The position numbers and the translations under genes are program-made. Shown here piece after piece: positions 38,321-52,630 of a stretch of DNA of 64,000 nucleotides (positions are counted from its first letter, which is position 1; each line of letters starts with the position of its first letter). A model generated the notes under the pieces. That model did not search any database, was not told the DNA's origin, and saw only the letters and a list, made by a program, of their open reading frames with translations. Source of the stretch: a virus; the IMG/VR virus record IMGVR_UViG_3300025237_000002, positions 46,536 through 110,535 of that record. The stretch is one strand, 5' to 3'.

Positions 38321-38386
38321 GTATAGGGTTCTGCGGAGTCTACTCTTCTAACTTGTTAGGTCAGCCCTTACCATCTTGGTACACTA
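38321..38386 (-). ncRNA. Small RNA family member A
   Basis: The minus strand behind the promoter at 38387-38418 reads GTAGTG, a TACC-AAGAT-GGTA hairpin, GGGCTGA, a CTAAC-AA-GTTAG hairpin, then AGAAGAGTAGACTCC and GAACCCTATACT. The same order of elements occurs at 49721-49774 and 52567-52630. No reading frame is present. The 3' end is not defined. Confidence 0.6.
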
Positions 38387-38418
38387 CAAAGATAAGGAAT
38401 ATAATTGGTTCTACCTAA
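38387..38418 (-). promoter_or_regulatory. Promoter of small RNA A
   Basis: On the minus strand TTAG (38415-38418), 20 bases, TATCTTTG (38387-38394). Confidence 0.85.
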
Positions 38419-38471
38419 TTAAATCACATTTATTTTTAAATTAGATAAATTAAAAGTGCTAACTATAGTAT

Positions 38472-38503
38472 GTTGTGGGCACGGCTATGATATACTATCT
38501 TTG
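38472..38503 (+). promoter_or_regulatory. Promoter, TTG variant
   Basis: GTTG at 38472-38475, 20 bases, TATCTTTG at 38496-38503; start codon 38529. Confidence 0.75.
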
Positions 38504-38528
38504 CAGCTAACAATTAAAACTATCTATT

Positions 38529-38729
38529 ATGAATTACTATTATGAAATACACGTAACAGGCAAGAATGGATTTTCTACAGCAGTCATTGCTGATATGCCA
38601 ATGGAAGATGATGATATCATACTTAAGGCATATGAGGATGACATCCTACATGATGATGATTGCCATTATATTGATTATATTCAGGAGCTGTCATTTGAGG
38701 ATTGGAATACACACTTTAATAATATGTAA
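38529..38729 (+). CDS. Small acidic protein, 66 aa
   Basis: Highly acidic: MEDDDIILKAYEDDILHDDD in the middle, net charge strongly negative. Such acidic mimics of DNA occur among anti-restriction proteins, but nothing else supports that here. Own promoter and leader. Confidence 0.65.
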   Translation: MNYYYEIHVTGKNGFSTAVIADMPMEDDDIILKAYEDDILHDDDCHYIDYIQELSFEDWNTHFNNM

Positions 38730-38736
38730 GAATTTT

Positions 38737-38768
38737 CTTGCGTATGTTATATATAATGATTATCTTTG
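38737..38768 (+). promoter_or_regulatory. Promoter, TTG variant
   Basis: CTTG at 38737-38740, 20 bases, TATCTTTG at 38761-38768; start codon 38790. Confidence 0.75.
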
Positions 38769-38789
38769 CATTTCACTTAATAACTACAT

Positions 38790-38960
38790 ATGTTATATAC
38801 AGATAAAGCAAAGATAATTAAGCAAGAGGCATTACTTCTTTTAAAAAAAGTTGGTAGTAATAAGAAGATTGGTAAGAAGGAGATGACTTGGTTCTTTAAG
38901 AAGGTTACTGACTATAAGGACACTGATGATAATATGTGGGTAACACATAAAATAGATTAG
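38790..38960 (+). CDS. Small basic protein, 56 aa
   Basis: ATG at 38790, TAG at 38958-38960. Lysine-rich (LLKKVGSNKKIGKKEMTWFFKK) helix, probably nucleic-acid binding. Supported by its own promoter 22 bases upstream. Confidence 0.6.
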   Translation: MLYTDKAKIIKQEALLLLKKVGSNKKIGKKEMTWFFKKVTDYKDTDDNMWVTHKID

Positions 38961-38966
38961 TATAAA

Positions 38967-38998
38967 TTAGGTTATGTCGAATATAAGTTGTATCTTTG
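38967..38998 (+). promoter_or_regulatory. Promoter of the 450-nt RNA
   Basis: TTAG at 38967-38970, 20 bases, TATCTTTG at 38991-38998. Confidence 0.85.
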
Positions 38999-39002
38999 TA
39001 TT

Positions 39003-39450
39003 CAACAATTACAGTAAGATGAAGTAGGTCGATTACTTTTAAAACTAACGTAGACACCTTCCCTCAGATTATGGAAAACTGATGAGCAGCTTAAGCCAAG
39101 CAATTGGATAAGGACTAACATAGATAACAAAATAATAGGATATGGTTGAGATGAGTACTTTACAATAACGAATACTATTATTTTAATTAACCTTAAAACT
39201 TAGAACTTATGAAATAAGCTAAAAGTACATTTTTAAAAAACTATTGATAACCTTTTAAAACTATGCGGTATGTTAGCACGGGCACCACCCATTGGGTGAA
39301 ACTTAAATAAGATAAATTAAAAGAAGAATGATACTGAAGGGTTAAAGACCTTCGTGCTCTCTAGTAAGGAGCCATCCGCAAGATGAAGACCAGCAGTCGG
39401 TATTATTTGAGATGTAAAAGCCCATTGATTAATTTCAATGGGCTTTTTTT
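39003..39450 (+). ncRNA. Long non-coding RNA with own promoter and terminator
   Basis: Between the promoter at 38967 and the terminator at 39416 there is no frame longer than about 10 codons after any ATG. Local hairpins include CACCC-ATT-GGGTG near 39287 and AAGGTC-type pairs around 39340-39390 (GGGTTAAAGACCTTCG, GCCATCCGCAAGATGAAG). It does not match tRNA, tmRNA, RNase P or group I/II intron cores that I could recognise by eye. Size and isolation suggest a functional structured RNA. Confidence 0.6.
39416..39450 (+). terminator. Intrinsic terminator
   Basis: AAGCCCATTGA pairs with TCAATGGGCTT and is followed by seven T. It also separates this RNA from the convergent minus gene at 39454. Confidence 0.88.
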
Positions 39451-39453
39451 ATG

Positions 39454-39828
39454 TTATAATGATTTCTTAATTAATTTATCAATTTTCTTTAATATTTTAT
39501 CATCCCATTCTTCCATGGTATCATCGTGCGGTTCTTGTCCAGTTTGCGACTCGAATTCCTGAAGCATATATTCTTTATGCTTATCCATTTCACCGTTGAT
39601 AGTTGTCCACATATCACCCCATCCAGCCTCTAAGAACTGTTCAGCCCAGTCTGGTATGTTAGAATTGAATAATTCCTTCTTTACCTTATCAATCTTAGCT
39701 AGTTTATCCAGTAGCCCTTCATTGGTAATTCCAAAACATTCATTACATACAAGTTCTTTTCCAGTTTGCCCGTCCCAAGTTCTGTAATCTTTGACTTGAG
39801 CCTCGTTTTCACAATAGTAACATTTCAT
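39454..39828 (-). CDS. Zinc-finger protein, 124 aa
   Basis: N-terminal zinc site CYYC (residues 3-6) and CNEC (28-31), followed by an acidic helical body (DWAEQFLEAGWGDMWTTINGEMDKH) and a lysine-rich end. It is the only minus-strand gene between 1 and 47 kb, and has its own promoter. Function unknown; may bind nucleic acid. Confidence 0.7.
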   Translation of the reverse strand: MKCYYCENEAQVKDYRTWDGQTGKELVCNECFGITNEGLLDKLAKIDKVKKELFNSNIPDWAEQFLEAGWGDMWTTINGEMDKHKEYMLQEFESQTGQEPHDDTMEEWDDKILKKIDKLIKKSL

Positions 39829-39855
39829 ATTATATGGTTTTAATTAAACATACTG

Positions 39856-39887
39856 CAAATATACAACTAATAATTCAATCTCACAAA
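39856..39887 (-). promoter_or_regulatory. Promoter, Bacteroidota type
   Basis: Minus strand TTTG (39884-39887), 20 bases, TATATTTG (39856-39863). The leader then carries ATGTTTAATTAAAACCA, also used at 40.6, 45.8 and 46.1 kb. Confidence 0.82.
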
Positions 39888-39957
39888 TAAAATATCTTGC
39901 TTAAGGTGCGTGAATAGCGGCTTAAGCAGAGGTTAGCTGCTAGAGCGTGAAGATAAA

Positions 39958-39989
39958 TTTGCCAGGTCCAAAATAAAGTTGTATCTTTG
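39958..39989 (+). promoter_or_regulatory. Promoter, Bacteroidota type
   Basis: TTTG at 39958-39961, 20 bases, TATCTTTG at 39982-39989; start codon 40011. Confidence 0.82.
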
Positions 39990-40010
39990 AGGTATAAATA
40001 AATAAACAAT

Positions 40011-40286
40011 ATGAAAACGATACCTAATAATTTTGGAGTGAAAATTACCTCAGCAGATTTTGCTAGTAGTGATTATGGTAATATTAATGATTGTTCATTA
40101 GCAAAAGCAATAAAAAGAAAATTCCCTAATCATAGTGTGAATTGTGGAGCTTCTACTGTTAATATAGGTGATATTGAATTTGATATAGTTGATGTTAATA
40201 ATCAAATATGTATTAGAACTCAATCAAATTTACCAGTTAAGGGGTTTAATGTTAGATTAAACAAATCAGAATTTCAATGGAATTAA
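40011..40286 (+). CDS. Hypothetical protein, 91 aa
   Basis: Small beta-rich protein (NFGVKITSADFASSDYGNIND; CGASTVNIGDIEFDIVDVNNQ). Ends KSEFQWN. Followed 16 bases later by the next gene of the unit. Confidence 0.65.
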   Translation: MKTIPNNFGVKITSADFASSDYGNINDCSLAKAIKRKFPNHSVNCGASTVNIGDIEFDIVDVNNQICIRTQSNLPVKGFNVRLNKSEFQWN

Positions 40287-40302
40287 TCTTAAATTAGATA
40301 AA

Positions 40303-40512
40303 ATGAAAACTAAAACCGTACAAGTACAAATCACTAAGACTTATTACAAATCTACTACAGCTGAAGTAGAAGTACCTGAACATTTAACGGATGATGAACT
40401 TCATACGTATATTGAACAGCAAGAGGCTAAGGATTCAGAATTATCTGATAGGTTGGCTGATGCATCTCTAAATGAGGATTTAGATGGAATAGAAATAGAA
40501 GTCTTATTTTAA
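40303..40512 (+). CDS. Hypothetical acidic protein, 69 aa
   Basis: N-terminal strands (KTKTVQVQITKTYYKSTTAEVEVPE) and an acidic helix. Leader TTAAATTAGATAAAATG recurs before 44742. Confidence 0.65.
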   Translation: MKTKTVQVQITKTYYKSTTAEVEVPEHLTDDELHTYIEQQEAKDSELSDRLADASLNEDLDGIEIEVLF

Positions 40513-40537
40513 ATAAAACAAAATGAAAGAACTTTTA

Positions 40538-40569
40538 TTTGGTAGAACCAGATATTAGTTGTATATTTG
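40538..40569 (+). promoter_or_regulatory. Promoter, Bacteroidota type
   Basis: TTTG at 40538-40541, 20 bases, TATATTTG at 40562-40569; start codon 40598. Confidence 0.85.
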
Positions 40570-40597
40570 CAGTATGTTTAATTAAAACCACAATCAC

Positions 40598-41140
40598 ATG
40601 AGTGCAACAGTTTACGATATTCCAGAAAAATTTAAAAAGACACTTCCTAATATCTTCGATGACAATGACTTTGAGCAGTATGAAAAGCTTGAGAAGGAAT
40701 GGATTGGACGACTATCAAATTACATTAGAGATAATTATGGTTCAGGTCAATACGTAGGACGAACAATTCGTTTTCCTGTGGCTGATGGCGAAGGTATCTA
40801 TATGGTAATGAGAACGTCACCAGTACAATTAATTCACTTACCTTTGATGGATGGTTACCAAAGTGAGTTTGCACATTTAATGACAGCTAAAGAGGTTAAG
40901 AAAAGAATAGATGCTTCCGATAGAATGACAGCTTACTTAAATTCTTGGAAATCTCAAACGGTTGGTGATGTTAATAAGGTAATTGAAGCTCACGGGATTA
41001 AATCTGATGAACCTAGAGAGGGTTATCAATTAGTTGAGTGGTTAAACGTTAAATACCTATTACCAACTTACGAATCAAAGCACGGTTATGACCACGGAAT
41101 TTATAAATATTTATGTAACTTGAAGTTACGTACAGTTTAA
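40598..41140 (+). CDS. Hypothetical protein, 180 aa
   Basis: Soluble alpha/beta protein with GQYVGRTIRFPVADGEGIYMVMRTSPVQLIHLPLMDGYQ as a distinctive central beta sheet and a helical C-terminus. The pattern resembles conserved hypothetical proteins of phages and plasmids; function unknown. Confidence 0.68.
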   Translation: MSATVYDIPEKFKKTLPNIFDDNDFEQYEKLEKEWIGRLSNYIRDNYGSGQYVGRTIRFPVADGEGIYMVMRTSPVQLIHLPLMDGYQSEFAHLMTAKEVKKRIDASDRMTAYLNSWKSQTVGDVNKVIEAHGIKSDEPREGYQLVEWLNVKYLLPTYESKHGYDHGIYKYLCNLKLRTV

Positions 41141-41158
41141 TTTAGATAAAACAAGATT

Positions 41159-41458
41159 ATGAAACCAATCACATATAAGTACAAGAATTTCGATATTACA
41201 ATTTATGATTTCCAAGGTGATAATCATATAAACGTCACTTGCAGTTTAGAGGGTAAGTCTTTCAATAGAGCTTATGAAGTTAAACAGGAAGTTGAATCTA
41301 TTGTTATAGACGAGGAATATGTTTACCTGAATGACGGTGACGAGAATCAATTTGTAATCAAATTTGAAGGTGAGTCTTGTTTGATTATTGACACCTTTGA
41401 TAATAGAGGTGAGCATCTTGAAGTGATTGGATGTCATGACTTTTATGATGACGTTTAA
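41159..41458 (+). CDS. Hypothetical acidic protein, 99 aa
   Basis: Beta-rich and acidic (YLNDGDENQFVIKFEGESCLIIDTFDN). Shares a transcript with the gene before it (18-base gap). Not recognised. Confidence 0.63.
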   Translation: MKPITYKYKNFDITIYDFQGDNHINVTCSLEGKSFNRAYEVKQEVESIVIDEEYVYLNDGDENQFVIKFEGESCLIIDTFDNRGEHLEVIGCHDFYDDV

Positions 41459-41459
41459 A

Positions 41460-41491
41460 TTAGGTAGAACCAAATAAAAGTTGTATCTTTG
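41460..41491 (+). promoter_or_regulatory. Promoter, Bacteroidota type
   Basis: TTAG at 41460-41463, two bases after the preceding stop; 20 bases, TATCTTTG at 41484-41491. Confidence 0.87.
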
Positions 41492-41512
41492 ATGTAAGCA
41501 AAACAAATCATT

Positions 41513-41755
41513 ATGAAAAGACACGCAAAGAAAGCATTTACTGAATTAAAGAACTTAGGCTGTCCTGTAAAGGAGTGGCACGATGATTCCAGAGGTCATT
41601 TCTGGATTGATGCAGAAGAGCCTGAAGCTAACGAATGGTTAGATTACTGGAATGATGACTTCAGTGGTTCTGAGAAATTAGTTGAGATTCTGGAGAAAAA
41701 TGATTTATATTTTGAGTGGGAAAACTCAGCTATCGCAAATGTTTATGACAATTAA
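41513..41755 (+). CDS. Hypothetical acidic protein, 80 aa
   Basis: Begins MKRHAKKAFTELKNLGCPVKEW and contains RGHFWIDAEEPEANEWLDYW, a pattern widespread in small phage/plasmid proteins with a GHFWI motif. Function unknown. Confidence 0.65.
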   Translation: MKRHAKKAFTELKNLGCPVKEWHDDSRGHFWIDAEEPEANEWLDYWNDDFSGSEKLVEILEKNDLYFEWENSAIANVYDN

Positions 41756-41768
41756 AACAATCACAACT

Positions 41769-41948
41769 ATGAGTAAATTAACAGCAGAAAAAACAGAATG
41801 GTCTACGGACGAATTAACTGAGGACTTTAAAGTAATTGGGTTTGGACATGGCTATTGTGCTGTGGAGCGAAAATCAGATGGACAGAAAGGTTCTTTTGAT
41901 TTTGGTGGAAGACCACGTAAGTATTTTAATTTTGTAAAAAGCAATTAG
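41769..41948 (+). CDS. Small hypothetical protein, 59 aa
   Basis: Start at ATG 41769 (MSKLTAEKTEWSTDELTEDF), preceded by an ACAATCACAACT leader. Contains FKVIGFGHGYCAVERKSDGQKGSFDF, a compact beta hairpin. An earlier in-frame ATG lies inside the upstream gene. Confidence 0.62.
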   Translation: MSKLTAEKTEWSTDELTEDFKVIGFGHGYCAVERKSDGQKGSFDFGGRPRKYFNFVKSN

Positions 41949-41969
41949 ATTTAACTAAAACAAGATATT

Positions 41970-42284
41970 ATGAATAGTCCAATAGCAAGTGTAGGTGAAG
42001 TAAATTTACAGACTGGTGAATTTGAATACGGTGATATATATGATTTTTGGGGTGAAGATACTACCTATGAAGTATATCGCACTAAAACTAATGAATACCG
42101 TGTAGTATCCACAGCGGGATTAGAACCAATAGTACCAATAGGGGAAACTGGTAAATTTCAAGAAGACCAAACTGGTGAGTATTTATTTACTGGTGAATGT
42201 ATTTTTGTTGCATCTGGAAATGATGGATTAAAACAAATTCAAAAAGAATATGGTACTCTAATTCAAATGGGGTGTTATAAATAA
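41970..42284 (+). CDS. Hypothetical protein, 104 aa
   Basis: Tyr/Glu/Gly-rich beta protein (GEFEYGDIYDFWGEDTTYEVY). Leader GATTTAACTAAAACAAGA upstream. Not recognised. Confidence 0.63.
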   Translation: MNSPIASVGEVNLQTGEFEYGDIYDFWGEDTTYEVYRTKTNEYRVVSTAGLEPIVPIGETGKFQEDQTGEYLFTGECIFVASGNDGLKQIQKEYGTLIQMGCYK

Positions 42285-42314
42285 GATAGATTAAGTTTAA
42301 CTAAAAACCAACCA

Positions 42315-42761
42315 ATGCCAGAAGATATAGCCAAATTAGAAAAAGAATTAGCTTGGTATAAAGCATATGCCGACCACATTCAATCAACAAATCCTAGAGA
42401 GCATAATTGCGCTTGTGAAGTTGCTGATGATATAACAGATGATACAGAATATCCTTATTCTGAGGGAGATGATTATTGGACACTTCAAGAACCCGCTGAA
42501 CTAGAATATGAAGACAATTCTGGATTTTTCCAGAATGGGATTGTGGCTATTCAGAGCTGTTGGGATGACCAAAGCAAAGACTTTCACAGAGAGGACAGCG
42601 AAAGATTATATTTCAATTCCTTAGAAGAGGTACTAAAGCATTCGAGTTATAGGTATGAGTTTATCAAAGTTGAATGTTTTGATAGTGCCTATGAAGACAT
42701 TGATGATGGTGACTATTTTGTTGCTGTTGAAGAAACAGGTAAATTTCAAAAATCATATTAA
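42315..42761 (+). CDS. Hypothetical acidic protein, 148 aa
   Basis: Acidic throughout (EVADDITDDTEYPYSEGDDYW), with CACEV near residue 34. One base before the next gene. Not recognised. Confidence 0.63.
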   Translation: MPEDIAKLEKELAWYKAYADHIQSTNPREHNCACEVADDITDDTEYPYSEGDDYWTLQEPAELEYEDNSGFFQNGIVAIQSCWDDQSKDFHREDSERLYFNSLEEVLKHSSYRYEFIKVECFDSAYEDIDDGDYFVAVEETGKFQKSY

Positions 42762-42762
42762 G

Positions 42763-42993
42763 ATGGCAAAAATAATATATAAGAGAGTATTCCAGATGGG
42801 ATTTGATATTGCTGAAGGTGATGTGCCTGATGGTGAAAGTGAGTCGTTATTTAACGCAATAACCAATTTAATTGATAATTTCTATGATATTAACGGCAAG
42901 CGAGTTGAATTCATGTCGGTTGGTTGTGATAACTCAGAAGACATGAGTCATGCTTATGGTGAAAGAGAAATGGCTGAAATAAATAAGAATTAA
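42763..42993 (+). CDS. Hypothetical protein, 76 aa
   Basis: Start at ATG 42763 (MAKIIYKRVFQMGFDIAEGD). Helical and acidic; the frame extends upstream into the preceding gene but that part looks like a shadow. Confidence 0.6.
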   Translation: MAKIIYKRVFQMGFDIAEGDVPDGESESLFNAITNLIDNFYDINGKRVEFMSVGCDNSEDMSHAYGEREMAEINKN

Positions 42994-43008
42994 TCCAATA
43001 ATTAGTTG

Positions 43009-43016
43009 TATCTTTG
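43009..43016 (+). promoter_or_regulatory. Possible promoter, -7 only
   Basis: TATCTTTG at 43009-43016 with no TTTG/TTAG at the expected position. ATG of the next gene follows after 4 bases. Confidence 0.5.
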
Positions 43017-43020
43017 TATT

Positions 43021-43212
43021 ATGGAAGAACCAGTAGATTTATTCGAGCAATACGAAACGTTACCACAAGAGGTACAAGACATCTTATTAGAATTTGGTGA
43101 TACTTGTGGTTATATAGAATGTGATGAATTATTACAAAAATTGAAACCTTTAGGTTATACCTTTGAGTATGGATTATCAGGTGAGCCTTATGATTTAACT
43201 AAGATAAATTAA
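43021..43212 (+). CDS. Small acidic protein, 63 aa
   Basis: Start at ATG 43021, nearly leaderless. Begins MEEPVDLFEQYETLPQEVQD, with FEQYExLPxEVQ as in small conserved phage proteins. Acidic helical; function unknown. Confidence 0.62.
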   Translation: MEEPVDLFEQYETLPQEVQDILLEFGDTCGYIECDELLQKLKPLGYTFEYGLSGEPYDLTKIN

Positions 43213-43243
43213 GATTACAAGTTTAACTAAAAACCAAACCACA

Positions 43244-43702
43244 ATGATTTACGTATTAAGAGCCGTTAATGGCATAAGTATAAATGGAAAGGAATTCTTA
43301 TTGGACGACAAAGGTCAACCATTAGAATTTAATGATACACGCCAAGCTAAGGACTTCCTTAGAGATAATGGTGTTGATTTAACAGACGATGAGATGGAAG
43401 ATAGTTTCCACTTTGAGGATAAAGAACTTCACAAGATACCAGTAAAAAATATCATATTCGTGTTTACAGTACAAGATGGTGATTCGCAAAGAACTGAATA
43501 CCAGACAGAAGAGGTGGACGCTAAATTGACGGATGAAGAGATTGATGCAAGAGGTGATGAACTTAATAGGATGAACTTTCCAAGTGAGGAATTATCCAAG
43601 GGGTTTTTCTGGGACTCTTCATGGGAGACAGCGGGATGCTATTCTAGGTTTGTAGAGTTACCAGATACAGAGTCTTTCAAGATAATCCAGGGAATTATCT
43701 AA
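43244..43702 (+). CDS. Hypothetical acidic protein, 152 aa
   Basis: Begins MIYVLRAVNGISINGKEFLLD, beta-rich, then acidic (DDEMEDSFHFEDKE). C-terminal FFWDSSWETAGCYSRFVELPD is aromatic. Leader AGTTTAACTAAAAACCAAAC precedes it. Confidence 0.63.
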   Translation: MIYVLRAVNGISINGKEFLLDDKGQPLEFNDTRQAKDFLRDNGVDLTDDEMEDSFHFEDKELHKIPVKNIIFVFTVQDGDSQRTEYQTEEVDAKLTDEEIDARGDELNRMNFPSEELSKGFFWDSSWETAGCYSRFVELPDTESFKIIQGII

Positions 43703-43707
43703 AAATG

Positions 43708-43739
43708 TTTGGTAGTCTCGAAGATAACTCTTATCTTTG
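43708..43739 (+). promoter_or_regulatory. Promoter, Bacteroidota type
   Basis: TTTG at 43708-43711, 20 bases, TATCTTTG at 43732-43739; start codon 43763. Confidence 0.87.
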
Positions 43740-43762
43740 CAGAGAACAAAACAATCATACGA

Positions 43763-44653
43763 ATGAAATACAAAATTCCAAAAAACTTATTATCAACTCA
43801 AAACAGCAAAACTGTAAAGGGTGAAAAGTTTGGGTACACTACGTACATTATGTACTTAGCACCACACAAACAAAACTCTAAAGGGGTTAACCTTTGTGCC
43901 AAGGCTACAAAGGGCTGTGCCGAAGCTTGTTTATTTAAGTCAGGAGCTGCAAGGTTCGACCAAGTACAACAAGGTAAAATTAATAAGACCGAATATTTCT
44001 TAGCAAACCGTAGACTTTTTATGTCACAATTGGCAAATGAAATTAAAGGTATTGAACATAAGCATTCAATCGTTGAAGGTGAGAAGGTTTTATCATTCAA
44101 CAAATCAGTATTGCGATATAAGAACTTTGCAATCCGTTTGAACGGTACAAGTGATTTTCCTTTTGAGAATTTAAGAATTTTCAAACGTACTGCGACTGGT
44201 GAAATTTGGACGTATAAAAAGCCAAGTAAGAACTTGTTAAACATCTTCGAATTGTTTCCTGAAATTCAGTTTTACGATTACACGAAATTAGACAAGAGAT
44301 TTAGCAAAATTCAATCTCGTAACTATCACTTAACATTTTCAAGAAGTGAAGATAACCAAGTTGAAAGTGTAGACTTATTAAATAGAGGTTACAATGTAGC
44401 TGTAGTATTTGGTATTAAAGATGAAAGCGACTTACCTAATGAATATTTAGGGTTTCCAGTAGTAAATGGAGATGAAAGCGATTTACGTTTCTTAGATGAA
44501 GGTAATGTAATTGTAGGGCTTAAATATAAGCTTATGACTGGTAAAGGAACAGCGGGGCAAAATGCAATTATGTTAAGAGACAATCCGTTTATAGTTGGGG
44601 CTGCAGATTTTGACAAACCTAAAAAAGAATTGGTTAAAAGTTTGGTAGAGTAG
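43763..44653 (+). CDS. GP88-like phage protein (PF17338 type), 296 aa
   Basis: Start at ATG 43763 (MKYKIPKNLLSTQNSK) behind an ACAATCATACGA leader. The cysteine cluster C45-x6-C52-x3-C56 (LCAKATKGCAEACLF) and the later RLNGTSDFPFENL match the phage gene product 88 family, in which CxxxxxGCxxxCL is followed by RLNGTSD. Function of that family is unknown; the three cysteines could bind zinc or an iron-sulfur cluster. Full family length (about 250-300). The TTTG of the next promoter overlaps its last codons. Confidence 0.75.
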   Translation: MKYKIPKNLLSTQNSKTVKGEKFGYTTYIMYLAPHKQNSKGVNLCAKATKGCAEACLFKSGAARFDQVQQGKINKTEYFLANRRLFMSQLANEIKGIEHKHSIVEGEKVLSFNKSVLRYKNFAIRLNGTSDFPFENLRIFKRTATGEIWTYKKPSKNLLNIFELFPEIQFYDYTKLDKRFSKIQSRNYHLTFSRSEDNQVESVDLLNRGYNVAVVFGIKDESDLPNEYLGFPVVNGDESDLRFLDEGNVIVGLKYKLMTGKGTAGQNAIMLRDNPFIVGAADFDKPKKELVKSLVE

Positions 44654-44672: not shown

Positions 44673-44741
44673 TATCGGTGAAAGCATTAAGTTAGTAACC
44701 GATTTAACTAAAATTAAACCACACATCTTAAATTAGATAAA

Positions 44742-46116: not shown

Positions 46117-46326
46117 ATGTCAACAAGAATTGATAAAATGTTAGACCTTATTTGTTTTAATCACGAAAAGGATGCAGTAGTAGAAAGTGCTAAGTTATTA
46201 ATGAAACTCGATAATATAGAGGATAAAACACAAATGCTTGACCATGTATTGGGAGATGATGAATACCCAATTGAGCAATTCGAATATACATTTACAGTTC
46301 AGGACTTTTTAACTTATATCACTTAA
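46117..46326 (+). CDS. Small helical protein, 69 aa
   Basis: Acidic, helical (STRIDKMLDLICFNHEKDAVVESAKLLMKL). One base before the next gene. Not recognised. Confidence 0.62.
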   Translation: MSTRIDKMLDLICFNHEKDAVVESAKLLMKLDNIEDKTQMLDHVLGDDEYPIEQFEYTFTVQDFLTYIT

Positions 46327-46327
46327 T

Positions 46328-46546
46328 ATGAAAGAGCTACAACTAGAGGTGAGGTTATCAATGCATGGTGAGTATGAAAATACCCTAACTGTTTGCATTG
46401 AGATTCCAAAAGATACAGCTGACGAAAATGAGATGGCTGTTATGATGAAGGAGCTTAATGTCGAGATGGCAGATATGTATGACGATTATGAAGAGTGGGA
46501 AGATGGTAACATCTCTTGGACTCTTGAAAATTGGGAAGAACTTTAA
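46328..46546 (+). CDS. Small acidic protein, 72 aa
   Basis: Begins MKELQLEVRLSMHGEYENTLTV, ends with an acidic DYEEWEDGNISWTLENWEEL. Beta sheet plus helix; unrecognised. Confidence 0.62.
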   Translation: MKELQLEVRLSMHGEYENTLTVCIEIPKDTADENEMAVMMKELNVEMADMYDDYEEWEDGNISWTLENWEEL

Positions 46547-46575
46547 AATTGAATATTAACTTTAAATTATATAAA

Positions 46576-47190
46576 ATGAAAAACTTTTTAATGATTGCAG
46601 TATTATTATTTACAACAGCTATGATGGCTGAGGTCAAACTACCAGAAATTCGTGAAGTGTTAAAACACGTTGAAACAAACTACAATCCTGATGTGATTGG
46701 AGACAATGGAACTTCATTTGGGATACTTCAAATTAGACAGATTGCCATTGATGACGTGAATCAGAAATGCGGTACTAGTTATTCACATGAAGATGCCTTC
46801 GATGTCACTTGTTCTGAGGAAATATTCGATTTATATGTTACAATCTGGAGTGATAAGCTGGAGATTAGACATGGACGGGAGGCAACAGTTGAAGATATTG
46901 TTAGAATCTGGAATGGCGGCCCGAGAGGTTATCAGAAGAATTCAACTAAACATTATTATAATAAATTCATTAATTATTCGTATCTTTGTAATATGGCAAC
47001 TAAATCTGATAATCGAAAATGCTTCGTTGGAGGCAAACTAGGAATCGTTACTAAACGTTATACCCACACGGTGGATGTCTTCCTATTCAAATCTAAACGC
47101 ACAATGTATGGCGTTCATAAGAAATATGTGAAGATGCTTCCAGTTGATTTACCTCTAGTAACGAATCAATTCACCATTCAGTTTGGGTAA
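46576..47190 (+). CDS. Secreted lysozyme-like / lytic transglycosylase protein
   Basis: Start at ATG 46576. Signal peptide MKNFLMIAVLLFTTAMMA (1-18) indicates export. The domain follows the SLT/lysozyme pattern: HVETNYNPDVIGDNGTSFGILQI (31-53) with catalytic-type Glu33, then VEDIVRIWNGGPRGYQKNSTKHYYNKF late in the domain. Lytic transglycosylases cut the peptidoglycan glycan chain. In phages such proteins act in lysis or entry; a Sec signal fits lysis or envelope remodelling. 204 residues, a single domain with a basic C-terminal extension. Confidence 0.8.
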   Translation: MKNFLMIAVLLFTTAMMAEVKLPEIREVLKHVETNYNPDVIGDNGTSFGILQIRQIAIDDVNQKCGTSYSHEDAFDVTCSEEIFDLYVTIWSDKLEIRHGREATVEDIVRIWNGGPRGYQKNSTKHYYNKFINYSYLCNMATKSDNRKCFVGGKLGIVTKRYTHTVDVFLFKSKRTMYGVHKKYVKMLPVDLPLVTNQFTIQFG

Positions 47191-47383
47191 TTATAAGCGA
47201 GATACTGTCATCTATAAATTCAAGCACGAGATTCTATTGAACCGTGAGTTGAAAGAGTTCCAACGAATTCTCTTATGGAGGGCTTATCTCTTGACATTAC
47301 TTAGTATTAAGAAGCTTACAAAACACCAAGCCAACACTTGGAAATATCCAAAGGAATTAACTAACTTAAATAAGACAAAATAA
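47183..47383 (+). CDS. Possible basic protein, 66 aa (TTG start)
   Basis: No ATG is available; TTG at 47183 overlaps the lysozyme stop. Basic helical sequence (YKFKHEILLNRELKEFQRILLW). It fills the gap up to 47387 but could be a remnant. Confidence 0.4.
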   Translation: MGNYKRDTVIYKFKHEILLNRELKEFQRILLWRAYLLTLLSIKKLTKHQANTWKYPKELTNLNKTK

Positions 47384-47386
47384 TAT

Positions 47387-47593
47387 ATGGCTCACAAACC
47401 ACACACATCAGCAGAAATCAATCAGAATCATATCGAGAGAACTCTCAAGAAATTAGAGAAGGGTCAAATAACAGTTCAGGAATGTAACTTGAATAAAAGA
47501 TTTGACCGACTCAAGAAAGATAGTGAACCTTGGTACGATGAGTTGTATGGAAAGTATGTGGCAATTGTTCGAAAGAAGTCAATGGCATACTAA
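47387..47593 (+). CDS. Small basic protein, 68 aa
   Basis: MAHKPHTSAEINQNHIERTLKKLEKGQITVQECNL; helical, basic. Last plus-strand gene before the strand switch. Confidence 0.63.
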   Translation: MAHKPHTSAEINQNHIERTLKKLEKGQITVQECNLNKRFDRLKKDSEPWYDELYGKYVAIVRKKSMAY

Positions 47594-47613
47594 GTTAGGA
47601 AAACATAAGATAT

Positions 47614-47646
47614 AAAAAAAGCCTCTAAATTATTAGAGGCTTTTTT
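47614..47646. terminator. Bidirectional terminator at the strand switch
   Basis: GCCTCTAA (47621-47628) pairs with TTAGAGGC (47633-47640), flanked by seven A and six T, so it can end transcripts from both sides. Confidence 0.9.
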
Positions 47647-47649
47647 CGT

Positions 47650-47661
47650 ACACAATTGTGT
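47650..47661. repeat. ACAC-AATT-GTGT palindrome
   Basis: Perfect palindrome preceded by CGT, between the terminator and the end of the minus gene at 47666. Confidence 0.78.
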
Positions 47662-47665
47662 TTGG

Positions 47666-48172
47666 CTAGAACTTATAACCCGCTAGGTTAGTGTTTAAAA
47701 CCTTACCACCTTCCCGAACAATCTTGTCCAATGAGGTTTGAAGTTTCAATTGACCTTGAGGTAATTTCTTCATCTTAGCAATTGACATATTCCAACTAAG
47801 AATACGTTTCTTACCATCAGACGCTTGAAAGTAAATTCCTTTGTTGGAGTTCTTGGTAGTGTCTTTCTTTTCCAACCACACTTGAAATAACTCATCTACC
47901 TGAACCTCTAAGTCAGACTCAATAATAAAAGGTTCTCCATTTGAACCTTTGGTTAAACCCGTGTTGATACTTGGTAATGATTTAGCATAAGCTTCAGCTT
48001 CAGCTAATTGACTTCTCATTCCCTCATGAGGCATAATATGAGTGCAACCACCATGACCATCATTTTTTGCATAACCCATTTTCTTGCCGTTGAAATAAAC
48101 ATCAGCAGTAAATGCATTGGTCTCTTCAGACATTTGTTCTGAAAAGTAAACTTTCTTCAATTGTAATTTCAT
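47666..48172 (-). CDS. Hypothetical protein, 168 aa
   Basis: Begins MKLQLKKVYFSEQMSEETNAFTADVYFNGKKMGYAKNDGHGG, a beta sheet with an NDGHGG loop followed by helices; this pattern occurs in conserved phage and mobile-element proteins of unknown role. The C-terminal KLPQGQLKLQTSLDKIV echoes KLPQGQLDPKSYKDV in the methylase at 56782. First gene left of the strand switch. Confidence 0.7.
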   Translation of the reverse strand: MKLQLKKVYFSEQMSEETNAFTADVYFNGKKMGYAKNDGHGGCTHIMPHEGMRSQLAEAEAYAKSLPSINTGLTKGSNGEPFIIESDLEVQVDELFQVWLEKKDTTKNSNKGIYFQASDGKKRILSWNMSIAKMKKLPQGQLKLQTSLDKIVREGGKVLNTNLAGYKF

Positions 48173-48200
48173 ATAAAGTTATTTTAGATTAAACATAATG

Positions 48201-48232
48201 CAAATATACAACTTATATTTGATTCTACCAAA
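48201..48232 (-). promoter_or_regulatory. Promoter, Bacteroidota type
   Basis: Minus strand TTTG (48229-48232), 20 bases, TATATTTG (48201-48208). It starts at the T-tract of the terminator at 48234. Confidence 0.87.
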
Positions 48233-48233
48233 T

Positions 48234-48263
48234 AAAAAAAGCCACCTGAATTAACAGGTAGCT
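48234..48263 (-). terminator. Intrinsic terminator of RNA E
   Basis: Minus strand AGCTACCTG-TTAATT-CAGGTGGCT (9 bp, one G-U) followed by seven T. Confidence 0.87.
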
Positions 48264-48523
48264 TTTAATCGCAATGCTCGTATTTTTGAAGTGCATACAT
48301 TCACTAACGGTACACTTTTAATCGCAATGCTCGTATTTTTGAAGTGCATACATTCACTAACGGTACACTTTATATTGGTAGCCTTGTTTATCCCTTCTAT
48401 CCACAGTCTACTATTCTAACTATCGAGGTCTTTCACTCTGTCAAACAGGTTAGTGTATAACTGCTCAGTGGTTCTGGAATTGCTTAGTCCGTCTTCTCAG
48501 ATTTTACAACGGATACTACAGCG
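48240..48523 (-). ncRNA. Small RNA family member E (long form)
   Basis: A roughly 280-nt minus transcript with its own promoter (48524) and terminator (48234), and no frame. It contains GTAGT, GAAGACGGAC and GTTAGAATAGTAGACT in the same order as GTAGTG, GACGGGC and GTTAGAAGAGTAGACT of the shorter RNAs at 38.3, 49.7 and 52.6 kb, with a longer insertion in the middle. The 3' part consists of the 53-bp duplication. Confidence 0.65.
48262..48367 (-). repeat. 53-bp perfect tandem duplication
   Basis: Copies at 48262-48314 and 48315-48367, each starting CTTTTAATCGCAATGCTCGT and ending ACTAACGGTACA on the plus strand. It lies in the 3' part of RNA E. Confidence 0.95.
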
Positions 48524-48555
48524 TAAAGATACTACATTATATCCAGATAAACAAG
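48524..48555 (-). promoter_or_regulatory. Promoter of RNA E
   Basis: Minus strand CTTG (48552-48555), 20 bases, TATCTTTA (48524-48531). Confidence 0.7.
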
Positions 48556-48594
48556 TTTGAATGGATTTACTTTTGCCATCTTGTTTTGTTTAAA

Positions 48595-49176
48595 TTAAGT
48601 TATCTCCGTACACTTTTGTGTTAGGGCTTGGTCGATAACGCTTTTAGCTTCAGCTATCATATCTTCTTGCCCATCGTCCCCATAATATCCCCAGCAACTA
48701 TCAATATCTTCACCGTCTTTGGTTATGTTATATCCATACACCTCACCACAAAGGTAAGAGTCATATAGTTTCACATTGCTAATCAAATCTTCTAGAATAG
48801 TCTTTCCAGCCGCTTTTTCATAACCCTTAACGGATTTATATCCCCATTCTTTAAGGCACGCTTTATTGACAAATACGAAGCCAATTTGCCCACTATCCCA
48901 ACGACAAGAATATCCAATAGTATTAATAGTAATACCACTATGGTCGTACATATAAACTGGTAAGACTGCAAGTGCTTTATACTTTTTAATAAGAGCTTCT
49001 TTGAATTCATCCCAACTGTTATAGTCATCGGCAGATAAGTCAGTATCGTTTTGCAAAGAGTATCTACTATGTGATAAAGCGTATAATGCGTTACCGTCAT
49101 ATTCTGCAATAGGGTTTTCAGGATTTAAGTCCTGTTCGATTTTAATCTCGTAACCTTTGTAATTGATTGTATCCAT
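48595..49176 (-). CDS. Conserved hypothetical protein, 193 aa
   Basis: Carries the YMYDHSGITINTIGYSCRWDSGQIGFVFV block (about 94-122), a signature I associate with conserved phage and conjugative-element proteins of unknown function. Ends with a helical AEAKSVIDQAL. The ACAC-TTTT-GTGT site at 48610 lies in its last codons. Confidence 0.75.
   Translation of the reverse strand: MDTINYKGYEIKIEQDLNPENPIAEYDGNALYALSHSRYSLQNDTDLSADDYNSWDEFKEALIKKYKALAVLPVYMYDHSGITINTIGYSCRWDSGQIGFVFVNKACLKEWGYKSVKGYEKAAGKTILEDLISNVKLYDSYLCGEVYGYNITKDGEDIDSCWGYYGDDGQEDMIAEAKSVIDQALTQKCTEIT
48610..48621. repeat. ACAC-TTTT-GTGT site inside a gene end
   Basis: CGTACACTTTTGTGTT, same extended form as 37668; encodes QKC near the C-terminus of the 48595 gene. 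Confidence 0.75.
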
Positions 49177-49196
49177 GATTTGATTTGTTTGTTTGA

Positions 49197-49228
49197 CAAA
49201 GATAGTGTTAATAATTCAAACTACCAAA
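49197..49228 (-). promoter_or_regulatory. Promoter, Bacteroidota type
   Basis: Minus strand TTTG (49225-49228), 20 bases, TATCTTTG (49197-49204). Confidence 0.85.
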
Positions 49229-49630
49229 TTAATTGCTATAAATTGCAAATATCATTGGTTGTATCTTCTTACCATAATCGGTATACATTATACCATAATG
49301 ATACAAAAATCCGTCAATTTCAAAACTATCTACCTCATTATCTCCTAAATGACCGTCAAAAAGCCATTTTAAAGCCGTTTTCTCGTCATTTGCACCATAA
49401 CCGATAGTATCTTGTACCAATTCCTTAAAAGCTACCTCAGATTTAAGTGCATGAAGCTCTTCTCTCTTCATATTCTCCATGCTAATAGCGTGAACATCGT
49501 CAATTTCAGCATTAATATCTGCAATGCTCATAGCATCATAGTTATAAACCGTTCTAGGTCTATGTCCATATGCGTCCTTGTAAATGTCACTTAACATTGA
49601 TATTGCCTCGCTTTTTTCAGTAGTTATCAT
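49229..49630 (-). CDS. Hypothetical protein, 133 aa
   Basis: Start at ATG 49630 (MITTEKSEAISMLSDIY); any longer frame only translates the promoter leader. Helical N-terminus, then VQDTIGYGANDEKTALKWLFDGHLGDNEV and a beta hairpin. Not recognised. Confidence 0.65.
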   Translation of the reverse strand: MITTEKSEAISMLSDIYKDAYGHRPRTVYNYDAMSIADINAEIDDVHAISMENMKREELHALKSEVAFKELVQDTIGYGANDEKTALKWLFDGHLGDNEVDSFEIDGFLYHYGIMYTDYGKKIQPMIFAIYSN

Positions 49631-49652
49631 AATGTGATTGTTTTGTTCAATA

Positions 49653-49684
49653 CAAAGATACAACTTATATTCCACACTGCCAAA
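49653..49684 (-). promoter_or_regulatory. Promoter, Bacteroidota type
   Basis: Minus strand TTTG (49681-49684), 20 bases, TATCTTTG (49653-49660). Confidence 0.87.
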
Positions 49685-49720
49685 CTTATTTTAGATAAAT
49701 TAAAAGTATTTGAAATTTAA

Positions 49721-49774
49721 GTTTGTTGTAGGTTGGAGTCTACTCTTCCACCTAAGTGCGCCCGTCTTCCACTA
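49721..49774 (-). ncRNA. Small RNA family member C
   Basis: Minus strand GTAGTGGAAGACGGGC, hairpin CAC-TTAG-GTG, then GAAGAGTAGACTCC. Shortest member; no frame. Promoter at 49775. Confidence 0.6.
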
Positions 49775-49806
49775 CAAAGATAAGGAAAATAAATAACCCC
49801 ACCTAA
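49775..49806 (-). promoter_or_regulatory. Promoter of RNA C, fused to a terminator
   Basis: Minus strand TTAG (49803-49806), 20 bases, TATCTTTG (49775-49782). The TTAG is in the hairpin loop of the terminator at 49795-49819. Confidence 0.82.
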
Positions 49807-49819
49807 TTAAAGTGAGGTT
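49795..49819 (-). terminator. Terminator of the 49832 gene, fused to promoter
   Basis: Minus strand AACCTCAC pairs with GTGGGGTT (one G-U), followed by ATTTATTTT. Confidence 0.7.
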
Positions 49820-49831
49820 ATTTTAGATAAA

Positions 49832-50089
49832 TTAAGATTTAAAGAATACAACCCACTCTTCACGAATTAGATTAGCATCTAATTCACCTTCCATGTAAAC
49901 AGCTTTGGTTCTCCAAGGCTTTTTGTTTTGGGTTACTGTTATGTGTGCGTGTTCTTCAGGGTTTTGGTAATCGAAGCTCATCTCGAACTCTTCAGTTCTT
50001 AGACAAGTTGAGGTTTCTTTACCGTCCTTCTGGATTAACATTCCTAGCTCTCTTGCCACCTCTTGTACTTTTGCATCGTTTGGTCTCAT
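49832..50089 (-). CDS. Hypothetical protein, 85 aa
   Basis: Start at ATG 50089 (MRPNDAKVQEVARELGML). Helix then beta sheet (STCLRTEEFEMSFDYQNPEEHAHITVTQN). Unrecognised. Confidence 0.65.
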   Translation of the reverse strand: MRPNDAKVQEVARELGMLIQKDGKETSTCLRTEEFEMSFDYQNPEEHAHITVTQNKKPWRTKAVYMEGELDANLIREEWVVFFKS

Positions 50090-50112
50090 GTGATTGTTTG
50101 TTTTGTTCCCTA

Positions 50113-50144
50113 CAAAGATAATACTTTTAATTGTAACTACCAAA
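50113..50144 (-). promoter_or_regulatory. Promoter, Bacteroidota type
   Basis: Minus strand TTTG (50141-50144), 20 bases, TATCTTTG (50113-50120). Confidence 0.87.
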
Positions 50145-50179
50145 CTTATTCTAGATAAATTAAGATTTAAATATTAAGC

Positions 50180-50215
50180 AAAAAAAAAGCTCCTATTTTC
50201 TAGGAGCTTTTTTTT
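50180..50215 (-). terminator. Strong terminator of the 50232 gene
   Basis: AGCTCCTA (50188-50195) pairs with TAGGAGCT (50201-50208), flanked by long A and T runs; works on the minus strand. Confidence 0.92.
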
Positions 50216-50231
50216 ATATATGATATAGTGT

Positions 50232-51209
50232 TTAAGCTATTCTCTTTAGTAAAGCAAATACCATTGAACTACCATCGTTGTAAGAAACGTACTCAACAAG
50301 TTTGTACGAATTACCTAACATTGAAAGTAATTTGATTTTAGTACCACCTAATACACTAGGTACGGTATCACAATTCATTTCTTCAATTACACTCTTATGA
50401 AAGTCGATTGTAGTTTGATTTTTTGTGTTCGCTTCACGACAACAAAACGTTAAACCGATTAAACCATTAACTTTTACGCTATTATTAACTAATAGGTTTC
50501 TCACTTCATTTTCATACGTTGGAAACGTTCCACAATAGTCTAAAAATGCGTGACTGAATGTATTAGGTTTACATACATTTAAAATGTCACTAGACTCACC
50601 TAAATTAGCCGACATAACTAAATTGTTTTTAGCTATTGTTTGTGCCAATTTTAAGAATACATCTTTGTTATGTTCACAAGCTACATAATGGAAGTTATTA
50701 TCAACTTGAAGGTTAGTTTGAATCTCGAATGCACAAGAATCACTAGGTAATACAAAGAATTTACCACTTTTAACAGTAGACTTACTTACTTTGTTTACAA
50801 ACAAGTCTCTTACTTGCTCTTTGTTTGCACCATCAAAAGTTACCTCTTTAGGTGTAATAGCATCGATTTTAGCTTGTTTCTTAGCTTGTAGCACCTCTGC
50901 ATACATTGTTGAGTAGTTTCTGATTAAATACTCGTTAATAAGGTGTGCAACATCGAATTTTACCGTTTTACTATTAACATACTTGTTAAGATTATAAACC
51001 GATACTCCAATTTCTTTTGCAATTTCTTTTGGATTGACTCCTTTAAGTTTCAAATAAAACCCTACATACTTTCGTCTAGTGTTTATCTGAATTTTAAAAG
51101 CACCATACGTTTGTGGATTTTTGAAAGTCGTACCATTTACACAATCAATTGCTAAGGTTGGGTTGTGGATTAGTTGTCTCTCAACTTCTACTTTTACTTC
51201 GTTATTCAT
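50232..51209 (-). CDS. HTH protein with methyltransferase-like C-terminal domain, 325 aa
   Basis: GVNPKEIAKEIGVSVYNLNKYV (57-78) is a helix-turn-helix. The C-terminal two-thirds look like a Rossmann methyltransferase fold: FHYVACEHNKDVFLKLAQTI resembles the strand-2 acidic motif, and HAFLDYCGTF (220-229) resembles the catalytic D-P/Y-x-G-type motif IV. No clear GxGxG SAM loop is seen, so activity is doubtful. It could be a DNA-binding regulator using a dead methylase fold, or a modification enzyme. It is the largest gene of the minus arm with a -7-only-type promoter and a strong terminator. Confidence 0.6.
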   Translation of the reverse strand: MNNEVKVEVERQLIHNPTLAIDCVNGTTFKNPQTYGAFKIQINTRRKYVGFYLKLKGVNPKEIAKEIGVSVYNLNKYVNSKTVKFDVAHLINEYLIRNYSTMYAEVLQAKKQAKIDAITPKEVTFDGANKEQVRDLFVNKVSKSTVKSGKFFVLPSDSCAFEIQTNLQVDNNFHYVACEHNKDVFLKLAQTIAKNNLVMSANLGESSDILNVCKPNTFSHAFLDYCGTFPTYENEVRNLLVNNSVKVNGLIGLTFCCREANTKNQTTIDFHKSVIEEMNCDTVPSVLGGTKIKLLSMLGNSYKLVEYVSYNDGSSMVFALLKRIA

Positions 51210-51231
51210 TTTGTTTGTTATTTAATTTGTG

Positions 51232-51263
51232 TAAATATAAGAAAACTTTTGACTTGACCTAAT
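51232..51263 (-). promoter_or_regulatory. Promoter, variant spacing
   Basis: Minus strand TTAG (51259-51262), 19 bases, TATATTTA (51232-51239). Both spacing and -7 depart from consensus, so it is probably weaker or regulated. Confidence 0.6.
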
Positions 51264-51266
51264 TTA

Positions 51267-52007
51267 TTAGGTTATTTTTAAACTATTCTTTAAACATGTG
51301 TCTAATTCAATAGCTAATTGTTTTTCATCTTCACTAAATTTCATCTTCTTTTCTTGACGTACAATGAAAGGTCGTACTAAATCATGATTGTATTTGTCGT
51401 TTCTCATGAATTTAATGATAGCACGTCTACAAAATGCTTTTGTTGGTAAGTAGTCTTTTAAATCTACGATTTGATTAATGATGGTATCTGACTTGGCTTC
51501 ATCAATAAATTTAAGTTTACCTTTTCGAAAATCTACCATTTTACCTTGACCTGTATAACACATAACCAAAGGTGAAATTTGTATTCCTGTTTCCTCTTGG
51601 ATAGCTTTTAATCTAACATATTCTCTAATTTTTAAAGTTGACCATATGTGAATGAATTGGTTTGTTCCCCAACCTTTAGCACTATTATTCACATCTGCAA
51701 TAAATTCAGCTAATTCTATTTCAGAATCAACTTCAACAACTCTAAATTCAATTGCAAGTCCTAATTGTACTGCGGCCGTAAAACGGTGTTGACCATCTAA
51801 AAGATAGTAATGTTTTTGACCATCATCATCGAAGATGTCAGTCAATATAACAATTAACGTTGAAATAAATCCACGCTCCTTCATTGACTCTTTTAACGTG
51901 TTAACGTGAGTTTGTTTGATATCTCGATTAAAATCAAATGTTTTAAAAAGTTTGTAGTCAGTACTTGAGAAAATGTTTGTTACTAATTTAAAAACTGGCT
52001 TATTCAT
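51267..52007 (-). CDS. ParB/Srx-fold nuclease-like protein, 246 aa
   Basis: Start at ATG 52007 (MNKPVFKLVTNIF). YYLLDGQHRFTAAVQLGLAIEFRVV (68-92) is the ParB/Srx core with the DGQHR motif, which binds CTP or phosphate in ParB proteins; upstream DIKQTHVNTLKESMKERG is the usual helix before it. The rest is helical without a clear HTH. Related DGQHR/ParB proteins act in partition, regulation or as nucleases. It lies next to the HTH-methyltransferase-like gene. Confidence 0.78.
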   Translation of the reverse strand: MNKPVFKLVTNIFSSTDYKLFKTFDFNRDIKQTHVNTLKESMKERGFISTLIVILTDIFDDDGQKHYYLLDGQHRFTAAVQLGLAIEFRVVEVDSEIELAEFIADVNNSAKGWGTNQFIHIWSTLKIREYVRLKAIQEETGIQISPLVMCYTGQGKMVDFRKGKLKFIDEAKSDTIINQIVDLKDYLPTKAFCRRAIIKFMRNDKYNHDLVRPFIVRQEKKMKFSEDEKQLAIELDTCLKNSLKIT

Positions 52008-52036
52008 AATATGATTATTTGTTTTGTTTGTTGGTA

Positions 52037-52068
52037 CAAAGATAAGGTAAAAAAATGAACCCACCTAA
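52037..52068 (-). promoter_or_regulatory. Promoter fused to a terminator
   Basis: Minus strand TTAG (52065-52068) within the hairpin at 52058-52081; 20 bases, TATCTTTG (52037-52044). Confidence 0.85.
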
Positions 52069-52081
52069 TAAAAGGTGGGTT
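52049..52081 (-). terminator. Terminator fused to promoter
   Basis: Minus strand AACCCACC pairs with GGTGGGTT (8 bp), followed by CATTTTTTT. Confidence 0.85.
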
Positions 52082-52089
52082 ATTTTAAT

Positions 52090-52479
52090 TTATCCGTAAA
52101 TTACTTCCCCGAATATAACCGATTGAATAATAGCGTCAGCGGTTTCAGCGTCATCTTGCTCGTTTTTCATATCCATTAAAGAATCCATTGGGACTTTATC
52201 CATATTAGATAAAACAAGTTCCAATGTAATTACGTGGTTTTCTTCACTCTCACTATCTTGAATTGTAAATGAGTCACCTTCATTAAGGATTTGAATTAGC
52301 ACGTCTTCATAACATGGCTTCGATGAAAACTTTGGTGTTTGCACGTTAACTCTAGCTTTAGCGTAAATAGCTTCGTCTACGTCAATAGTAAGACCATAGT
52401 GTTGAATGTATCCAAGTCCATTGCATAATGCGTTGTGAAAAAATTCGATTTTCTCTTCGTTTGAAAGTTGTAATGTCAT
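52090..52479 (-). CDS. Hypothetical acidic protein, 129 aa
   Basis: Start at ATG 52479 (MTLQLSNEEKIEFFHNAL). Helical N-terminus with FHNALCNGLGYIQHYGLTIDVD, then strands. The motif EEKIEFFHNALCNG is one I associate with conserved phage proteins. Ends acidic. Confidence 0.65.
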   Translation of the reverse strand: MTLQLSNEEKIEFFHNALCNGLGYIQHYGLTIDVDEAIYAKARVNVQTPKFSSKPCYEDVLIQILNEGDSFTIQDSESEENHVITLELVLSNMDKVPMDSLMDMKNEQDDAETADAIIQSVIFGEVIYG

Positions 52480-52505
52480 AATGTGATTGTTTATTTTGTT
52501 CCTTA

Positions 52506-52537
52506 CAAAGATACAACTTATATTCCATACCACCAAA
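52506..52537 (-). promoter_or_regulatory. Promoter, Bacteroidota type
   Basis: Minus strand TTTG (52534-52537), 20 bases, TATCTTTG (52506-52513). Confidence 0.87.
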
Positions 52538-52566
52538 CTTATTTTAGATAATTTAAATTAATTTCA

Positions 52567-52630
52567 GTATAGGGTTCGGTGGAGTCCACTCTTCCGCTAT
52601 CTTGTAAGATACTCAGCCCGTCAACCACTA
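52567..52630 (-). ncRNA. Small RNA family member D
   Basis: Minus strand GTAGTGGTTGACGGGCTGAG, hairpin TATCTT-AC-AAGATA, then GGAAGAGTGGACTCC and GAACCCTATACT. Closest to member A; the hairpin sequence differs but pairing is kept. Confidence 0.65.

What the first reader, a model, noticed from the sequence alone, without database searches (positions are those of the whole stretch)
38321..52630. Four-member family of small promoter-driven RNAs with a shared core
Seen directly: at 38321-38386, 49721-49774, 52567-52630 and, in a longer form, 48240-48523 (all minus strand), a consensus promoter is followed by GTAGT, then GACGGG(C), a hairpin of varying sequence, then GAAGAGTAGACTCC or a close variant. 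The hairpins differ in bases (CTAAC/GTTAG, CAC/GTG, TATCTT/AAGATA) but keep pairing, which argues for a selected RNA structure. None has a reading frame. I know no named phage RNA of this form.
Basis: partly seen in the sequence, partly recalled or inferred. Interest (0 to 1): 0.82.

Follow-up and report, generated by a model that had tools for sequence, protein, structure and literature searches.

The report
Unlisted small RNA family in Bacteroidota phages
The repeated motif is a real small structured RNA, present in one to eleven copies in more than a hundred different viruses of Bacteroidota bacteria but in almost no bacterial genomes and in no RNA database searched, so it looks like an overlooked tool that these viruses use on their hosts.

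Summary
Three of the four copies are confirmed. On the minus strand, each has a TATCTTTG promoter box, a GGG, a hairpin of free sequence, then GAAGAGTRGACTCC. The fourth, long copy (48240-48523) is not supported.

The core pattern occurs in at least 119 stretches of IMG/VR; its reversed control occurs in 3. I collected about 120 distinct copies. The hairpin covaries: the closing pair is C-G in 39 and U-A in 24 of 63 unbiased cases, with no mismatch. A covariance model finds 1-11 copies per source genome. Three cultured phages carry it: Tenacibaculum phage Larrie (4), Cellulophaga phage phiST (3) and Flavobacterium phage immuto (1, diverged). Rfam has no match, and 257 Gb of prokaryotic genomes hold three exact hits.

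In 45 of 117 copies the next gene downstream runs the other way, so they are stand-alone units rather than mRNA leaders. No protein family is shared by all twelve element-bearing genomes compared.

Best explanation: short, trans-acting phage RNAs that present an invariant RRRRGUAGACUCC strand to a conserved host factor. The RNA family is well supported; the target and the transcripts are inference.

The parts
38387..38394 (-). promoter box TATCTTTG of copy A
   Evidence: box type enriched before the family
38319..38386 (-). RNA copy A (ends inferred; model match 38319-38369)
   Evidence: covariance model 38.1 bits, E 1.4e-9
38369..38381 (-). copy A optional 5' hairpin UACC-AAGAU-GGUA
   Evidence: sequence; same place filled by other pairing sequences in relatives
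38348..38364 (-). copy A hairpin P2: CUGAC-CUAACAA-GUUAG
   Evidence: covariation of P2
38335..38347 (-). copy A invariant core AAGAGUAGACUCC
49775..49782 (-). promoter box TATCTTTG of copy B, just behind terminator 49823-49791
49719..49774 (-). RNA copy B (ends inferred; model match 49719-49765)
   Evidence: covariance model 43.9 bits, E 2e-11
49748..49760 (-). copy B hairpin P2: C(G)CAC-UUAG-GUGG
49735..49747 (-). copy B invariant core AAGAGUAGACUCC
52631..52638 (-). promoter box TATCTTTG of copy C, just behind terminator 52676-52651
52565..52630 (-). RNA copy C (ends inferred; model match 52565-52621)
   Evidence: covariance model 38.4 bits, E 1.2e-9
52594..52616 (-). copy C hairpin P2 with inner stem UAUCUU/AAGAUA
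52581..52593 (-). copy C core AAGAGUGGACUCC

Best explanation
SHOWN by comparison: a phage-specific family of short structured RNA genes in viruses of Bacteroidota. Layout: promoter, optional 5' hairpin, GGG, a covarying hairpin P2 closed by C-G or U-A, an invariant strand RRRRGUAGACUCC, RNCCURC, and often a U-rich tail. A weaker outer helix between the GGG segment and the 3' part probably closes it as a three-way junction. INFERRED: each copy is transcribed on its own as an RNA of about 55-75 nt and acts in trans. The helices only position the invariant strand, which is bound by one conserved host component, most likely an RNA-binding protein or other RNA-handling machinery, so that the RNA works as a decoy or modulator that helps the phage take over the cell. 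Several copies per genome raise the dose.
For: Hairpins change sequence freely but keep pairing while the 13-nt strand beside them hardly varies in about 120 distinct copies: this is what a protein or RNA contact on the strand would leave behind. Own promoter boxes, 1-11 copies per genome, and 37 of 117 copies antisense to both neighbours indicate stand-alone genes. The phages are unrelated in size and type (4 to 299 kb contigs) and no protein family is common to twelve of them, so the shared partner is more likely in the host; inferred and recorded hosts are all Bacteroidota. The motif is almost absent from prokaryotic genomes, so it is not a copy of a host RNA at the level of this 20-position pattern.
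Against: No transcript, target or phenotype is known. The role of the core as a protein site is inference; it could equally be an antisense seed or part of a tertiary fold. Only 32 of 120 copies have a run of six T within 45 nt, so the 3' end is uncertain for most. Phage immuto has lost the CUCC of the core, and several related phages (phi14:2, elemo, Panino, crAss001) lack the RNA, so it is not essential for such phages in general.
Confidence: 0.4

Rival explanations
1. A base-pairing sRNA family: the invariant strand is an antisense seed for a conserved host RNA (or for several), and the hairpins give stability, as FopS sRNAs use a conserved unpaired seed.
For: Multicopy, short, separate genes with own promoters and one invariant strand, as in FopS (PMC11697453).
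Against: Sequences complementary to the core are not enriched in the translation start regions of the phages' own genes: 8-mers 0 found, 3.3 expected. Host RNAs were not tested.
Confidence: 0.25
2. An RNA that binds host or phage RNA polymerase in trans, in the manner of 6S RNA, and redirects transcription.
For: Promoter-proximal, phage-wide, host factor likely; this phage also carries a sigma factor.
Against: No long internal bulge like 6S; no Rfam 6S match.
Confidence: 0.12
3. A cis-acting leader such as the HK022 put antiterminators, which lie just behind early promoters and act on the polymerase that made them.
For: Structured RNA right behind promoters; in the marine group it sits ahead of co-oriented small genes.
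Against: In 45 of 117 copies the next gene downstream runs the other way; in Larrie and immuto all neighbouring genes do.
Confidence: 0.1
4. An anti-defence RNA mimic: a decoy of a CRISPR repeat (Racr) or of a type III antitoxin RNA.
For: Racrs are also solitary small units behind promoters in phages (PMC10651486).
Against: CRISPR repeats or host antitoxins with this core would be in bacterial genomes; a 20-position pattern hits only three places in 257 Gb. The core hardly varies, whereas repeats differ between systems. A shorter shared motif is not excluded.
Confidence: 0.08
5. A DNA element (replication, packaging or recombination site) rather than an RNA.
For: Multiple intergenic copies, some in convergent pairs 12 nt apart (Larrie, G033).
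Against: Promoter boxes at a narrow distance, optional second hairpins, T runs and pair covariation point to RNA.
Confidence: 0.05

Closest known systems
FopS family of paralogous sRNAs of Bacteroides (PMC11697453)
   Same: Multicopy short RNA genes with own promoters in Bacteroidota and a conserved unpaired segment
   Different: FopS is chromosomal (12-15 copies) and is an unpaired 5' part plus a terminator hairpin; here a covarying hairpin precedes the conserved strand and the genes are viral. Whether RbpB-like proteins bind is untested
Racr RNA anti-CRISPRs (PMC10651486)
   Same: Solitary small RNA units behind promoters in phage genomes
   Different: Racrs copy CRISPR repeats; this core is not found in bacterial genomes
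put RNAs of phage HK022 (own knowledge)
   Same: Hairpin-rich phage RNA directly behind a promoter
   Different: put acts in cis on downstream genes; many copies here have no co-oriented gene downstream
CsrB/RsmX type sponge RNAs (own knowledge)
   Same: Short conserved motif presented by hairpins of free sequence, dose raised by repeats
   Different: Motif here is 13 nt, beside the hairpin, once per RNA; no target protein known

Membership tests
Any Rfam 15 family | score above the family's gathering cut-off | tested here: not met
   window and 12 loci: none at the copies; permissive search of 11 short loci gives only chance-level hits
The family described here | GGG, covarying hairpin, RRRRGUAGACUCC, RNCNNRC | tested here: met
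   copies A, B, C by covariance model; fourth copy not met
FopS sRNAs | match to the FopS Rfam model (deposited according to the paper) | tested here: inconclusive
   no Rfam match, but I could not confirm that the copy searched holds the FopS model
FopS sRNAs | unpaired 5' stretch followed by a terminator hairpin | tested here: not met
   covarying hairpin lies 5' of the conserved strand
Racr | sequence similarity to CRISPR repeats | tested here: not met
   core pattern hits three places in 257 Gb of prokaryotic genomes, not arrays
put-like cis antiterminators | located upstream of co-oriented genes | tested here: not met
   45 of 117 have an opposing gene downstream
put-like cis antiterminators | suppresses termination in cis | not testable with these tools
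   needs an assay
Type III toxin-antitoxin RNA | adjacent toxin gene | tested here: not met
   no protein family is consistently adjacent
Host protein decoy RNA | specific binding of a host protein | not testable with these tools
   needs a pull-down

The most novel reading that the evidence does not exclude
A widespread takeover RNA: unrelated lytic phages of Bacteroidota all carry copies of one structured RNA whose invariant strand captures a single essential host component (RNA-binding protein, RNase, ribosome or RNA polymerase), a phage strategy not described before.
Probability: 0.35. Interest if true: 0.92.

Novelty: categorically new. Interest (0 to 1): 0.8.

Why it matters
A structured RNA gene that recurs in over a hundred very different phages of one bacterial phylum, in up to eleven copies, and that is missing from Rfam, must serve something these phages share. 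It gives a direct handle on how phages take over Bacteroidota, bacteria that are dominant in the gut and on marine particles (own knowledge). Three cultured phages carry it, so tests can start at once. It also shows that intergenic RNAs are being missed in viral annotation: in immuto a 33-codon gene is annotated across it on the other strand.

Tried and rejected
Long fourth copy as a member: rejected. Complementarity of GACGGGCG to the 16S decoding region (it equals the start of a universal 16S primer; own knowledge): rejected because GACGGGC is not conserved in the wider family (AAGGGC, ACGGGU, ACGUGC). CRISPR-repeat mimicry and cis leaders: tested, not met. Shared phage protein partner: none in all twelve genomes. 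Core as antisense to the phages' own start regions: no enrichment. Literature: a text search for the core letters gave primer-like and hantavirus-terminus coincidences among the 20 of 543 papers listed; the other searches found no description of this RNA. BLAST of the window region against phages found nothing. Loci L017-L021, L152, L166, L177, L190, L196 and L198 were set aside by eye as chance hits. My first hairpin finder chose the closing base by pairing, which is circular; one search repeats the test without that choice.

Full report
OBSERVATION. The window lies in a 110,535-base virus record. The three short copies are as described: box TATCTTTG at 38387-38394, 49775-49782 and 52631-52638 (minus strand), then TAGTG, GGGC, a hairpin and GAAGAGTRGACTCC. 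TATCTTTG is itself the phage's common promoter box (50 sites, 4.9 expected), so the three copies look like ordinary transcription units of this phage; copies B and C sit directly behind terminator-like hairpins. The long fourth copy keeps only GTAGACT of the core, is at chance level by pattern and is not found by the covariance model. I treat it as a separate noncoding unit.

RELATIVES. An exact pattern from the three copies already found 13 viral stretches. After removing chance hits and near duplicates there are about 120 distinct sequences, from phage contigs of 4 to 299 kb.

STRUCTURE. Most copies have RGG followed by a hairpin P2 that lies exactly between the GG and the core. On a 50-sequence alignment the structure shows 62 double-change cells against 23.6 in shuffles and a covariation score of 0.357 against 0.209, and it falls away when the partner is slid by one column. 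Because my hairpin finder selected for pairing, I repeated the test on 63 sequences where the first hairpin base was fixed only by the GGG run: 39 C-G, 24 U-A, none mismatched. Two main variants exist: a bulged type (YCUG...CGR, then AAGAG) and a mismatch type (UUCG...CGCA, then GAGGG). The core can form a 3-bp hairpin GAG-UAGA-CUC, with A-U or G-U in the middle; this is compatible but hardly varies, so it is weak evidence. A helix between the GGG segment and the 3' part is supported moderately: 0 of 100 swaps reach the observed mean energy in the best frame, with clear examples such as AUUCGGG/CCCGAAU in Larrie and GACGUG/CACGUC in L173. Many copies carry an extra 5' hairpin before the GGG, with other bases in other phages (UACC/GGUA, GUUG/CAAC, UUGUC/GACAA).

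GENOMICS. A covariance model finds the RNA in all 32 source records, 1-11 copies each; these records were chosen because they hold it, so the copy numbers are the new information. Among cultured phages it is in Larrie (4), in phiST (3 hits, E 1e-9 to 3e-6; not found by BLAST and not used to build the model, so an independent test of it) and, diverged, in immuto. It was not found in Panino, elemo, phi14:2 or crAss001, and phi38:1 gave only a hit at E 0.4. The marine group's portal protein is about 41-50% identical to those of Flavobacterium and Maribacter phages and an environmental phage, with Cellulophaga phages also matching, so all hosts that are recorded or could be inferred are Bacteroidota. 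In 257 Gb of prokaryotic genomes a 20-position pattern hits three places; one of those contigs has the same length (63,985 bases) as an IMG/VR phage contig (L127).

FUNCTION. Orientation speaks against a leader: 62 copies lie between co-oriented genes, 37 are antisense to both neighbours, 10 and 8 are mixed (genes are mechanical ORFs of 60 aa or more). In Larrie and immuto the copies face all neighbouring genes. In a 12-genome comparison no protein family accompanies the RNA everywhere; the widest is a metallopeptidase-like family in 8 (some records are fragments, and BLAST may miss remote relatives). The core is not complementary to the phages' own start regions. I therefore favour a trans-acting RNA with a host target. 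Which target is not shown: a protein decoy or modulator (0.4), a base-pairing seed (0.25) and polymerase binding (0.12) remain.

COMPARISON. FopS sRNAs of Bacteroides are the nearest analogue in behaviour: multicopy, short, own promoters, conserved unpaired segment (PMC11697453). Racrs are the nearest in being solitary phage RNA units behind promoters (PMC10651486). Neither membership was met. 'Categorically new' refers to the RNA family and its anatomy, not to a proven mechanism; small RNAs encoded by phages are known in the broad sense.

Noticed in passing
window 48237-48531 (minus strand): A promoter-to-terminator unit without a gene that holds an exact 53-nt tandem duplication (48262-48314 and 48315-48367); possibly a different noncoding RNA.
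   Followed up: partly
window 11042-11899 (+): The phage encodes its own sigma-70 family factor, while its genome is full of TATCTTTG boxes (50, against 4.9 expected).
   Followed up: partly
window 1075-2019, 3309-3998, 4042-4911, 5476-6438 (+); L065 14674-15213 and 15679-16461 (same record): Unusual gene set for a phage: radical SAM protein, Sir2, class I (Glu/Gln type) tRNA synthetase domain, ribose-phosphate pyrophosphokinase, RNA 2'-phosphotransferase and tRNA-His guanylyltransferase.
   Followed up: partly
Larrie 16935-16990(+)/17002-17056(-); G033 12728-12783(+)/12796-12851(-); also L002 and L093: Convergent pairs of the RNA with 12 nt between the model matches in the first two, one copy of the AAGRG type and one of the GAGGG type on opposite strands.
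   Followed up: no
L147, L173, L175, L133, L067, L187, L204, just downstream of the RNA: An inverted repeat like TTATTTAGAATNATTCTAAATAA follows the RNA within about 40 nt in several phages; it resembles a metal-regulator operator (guess from memory).
   Followed up: no
L206 19952-20050 (phage immuto KNV73_gp146): A 33-codon annotated gene overlaps the RNA on the opposite strand and is probably spurious.
   Followed up: no
window 43709-44653 (+) and relatives near copies in 12 loci: GP88 family protein recurs within 4 kb of the RNA in 12 loci; no consistent orientation, link unknown.
   Followed up: partly
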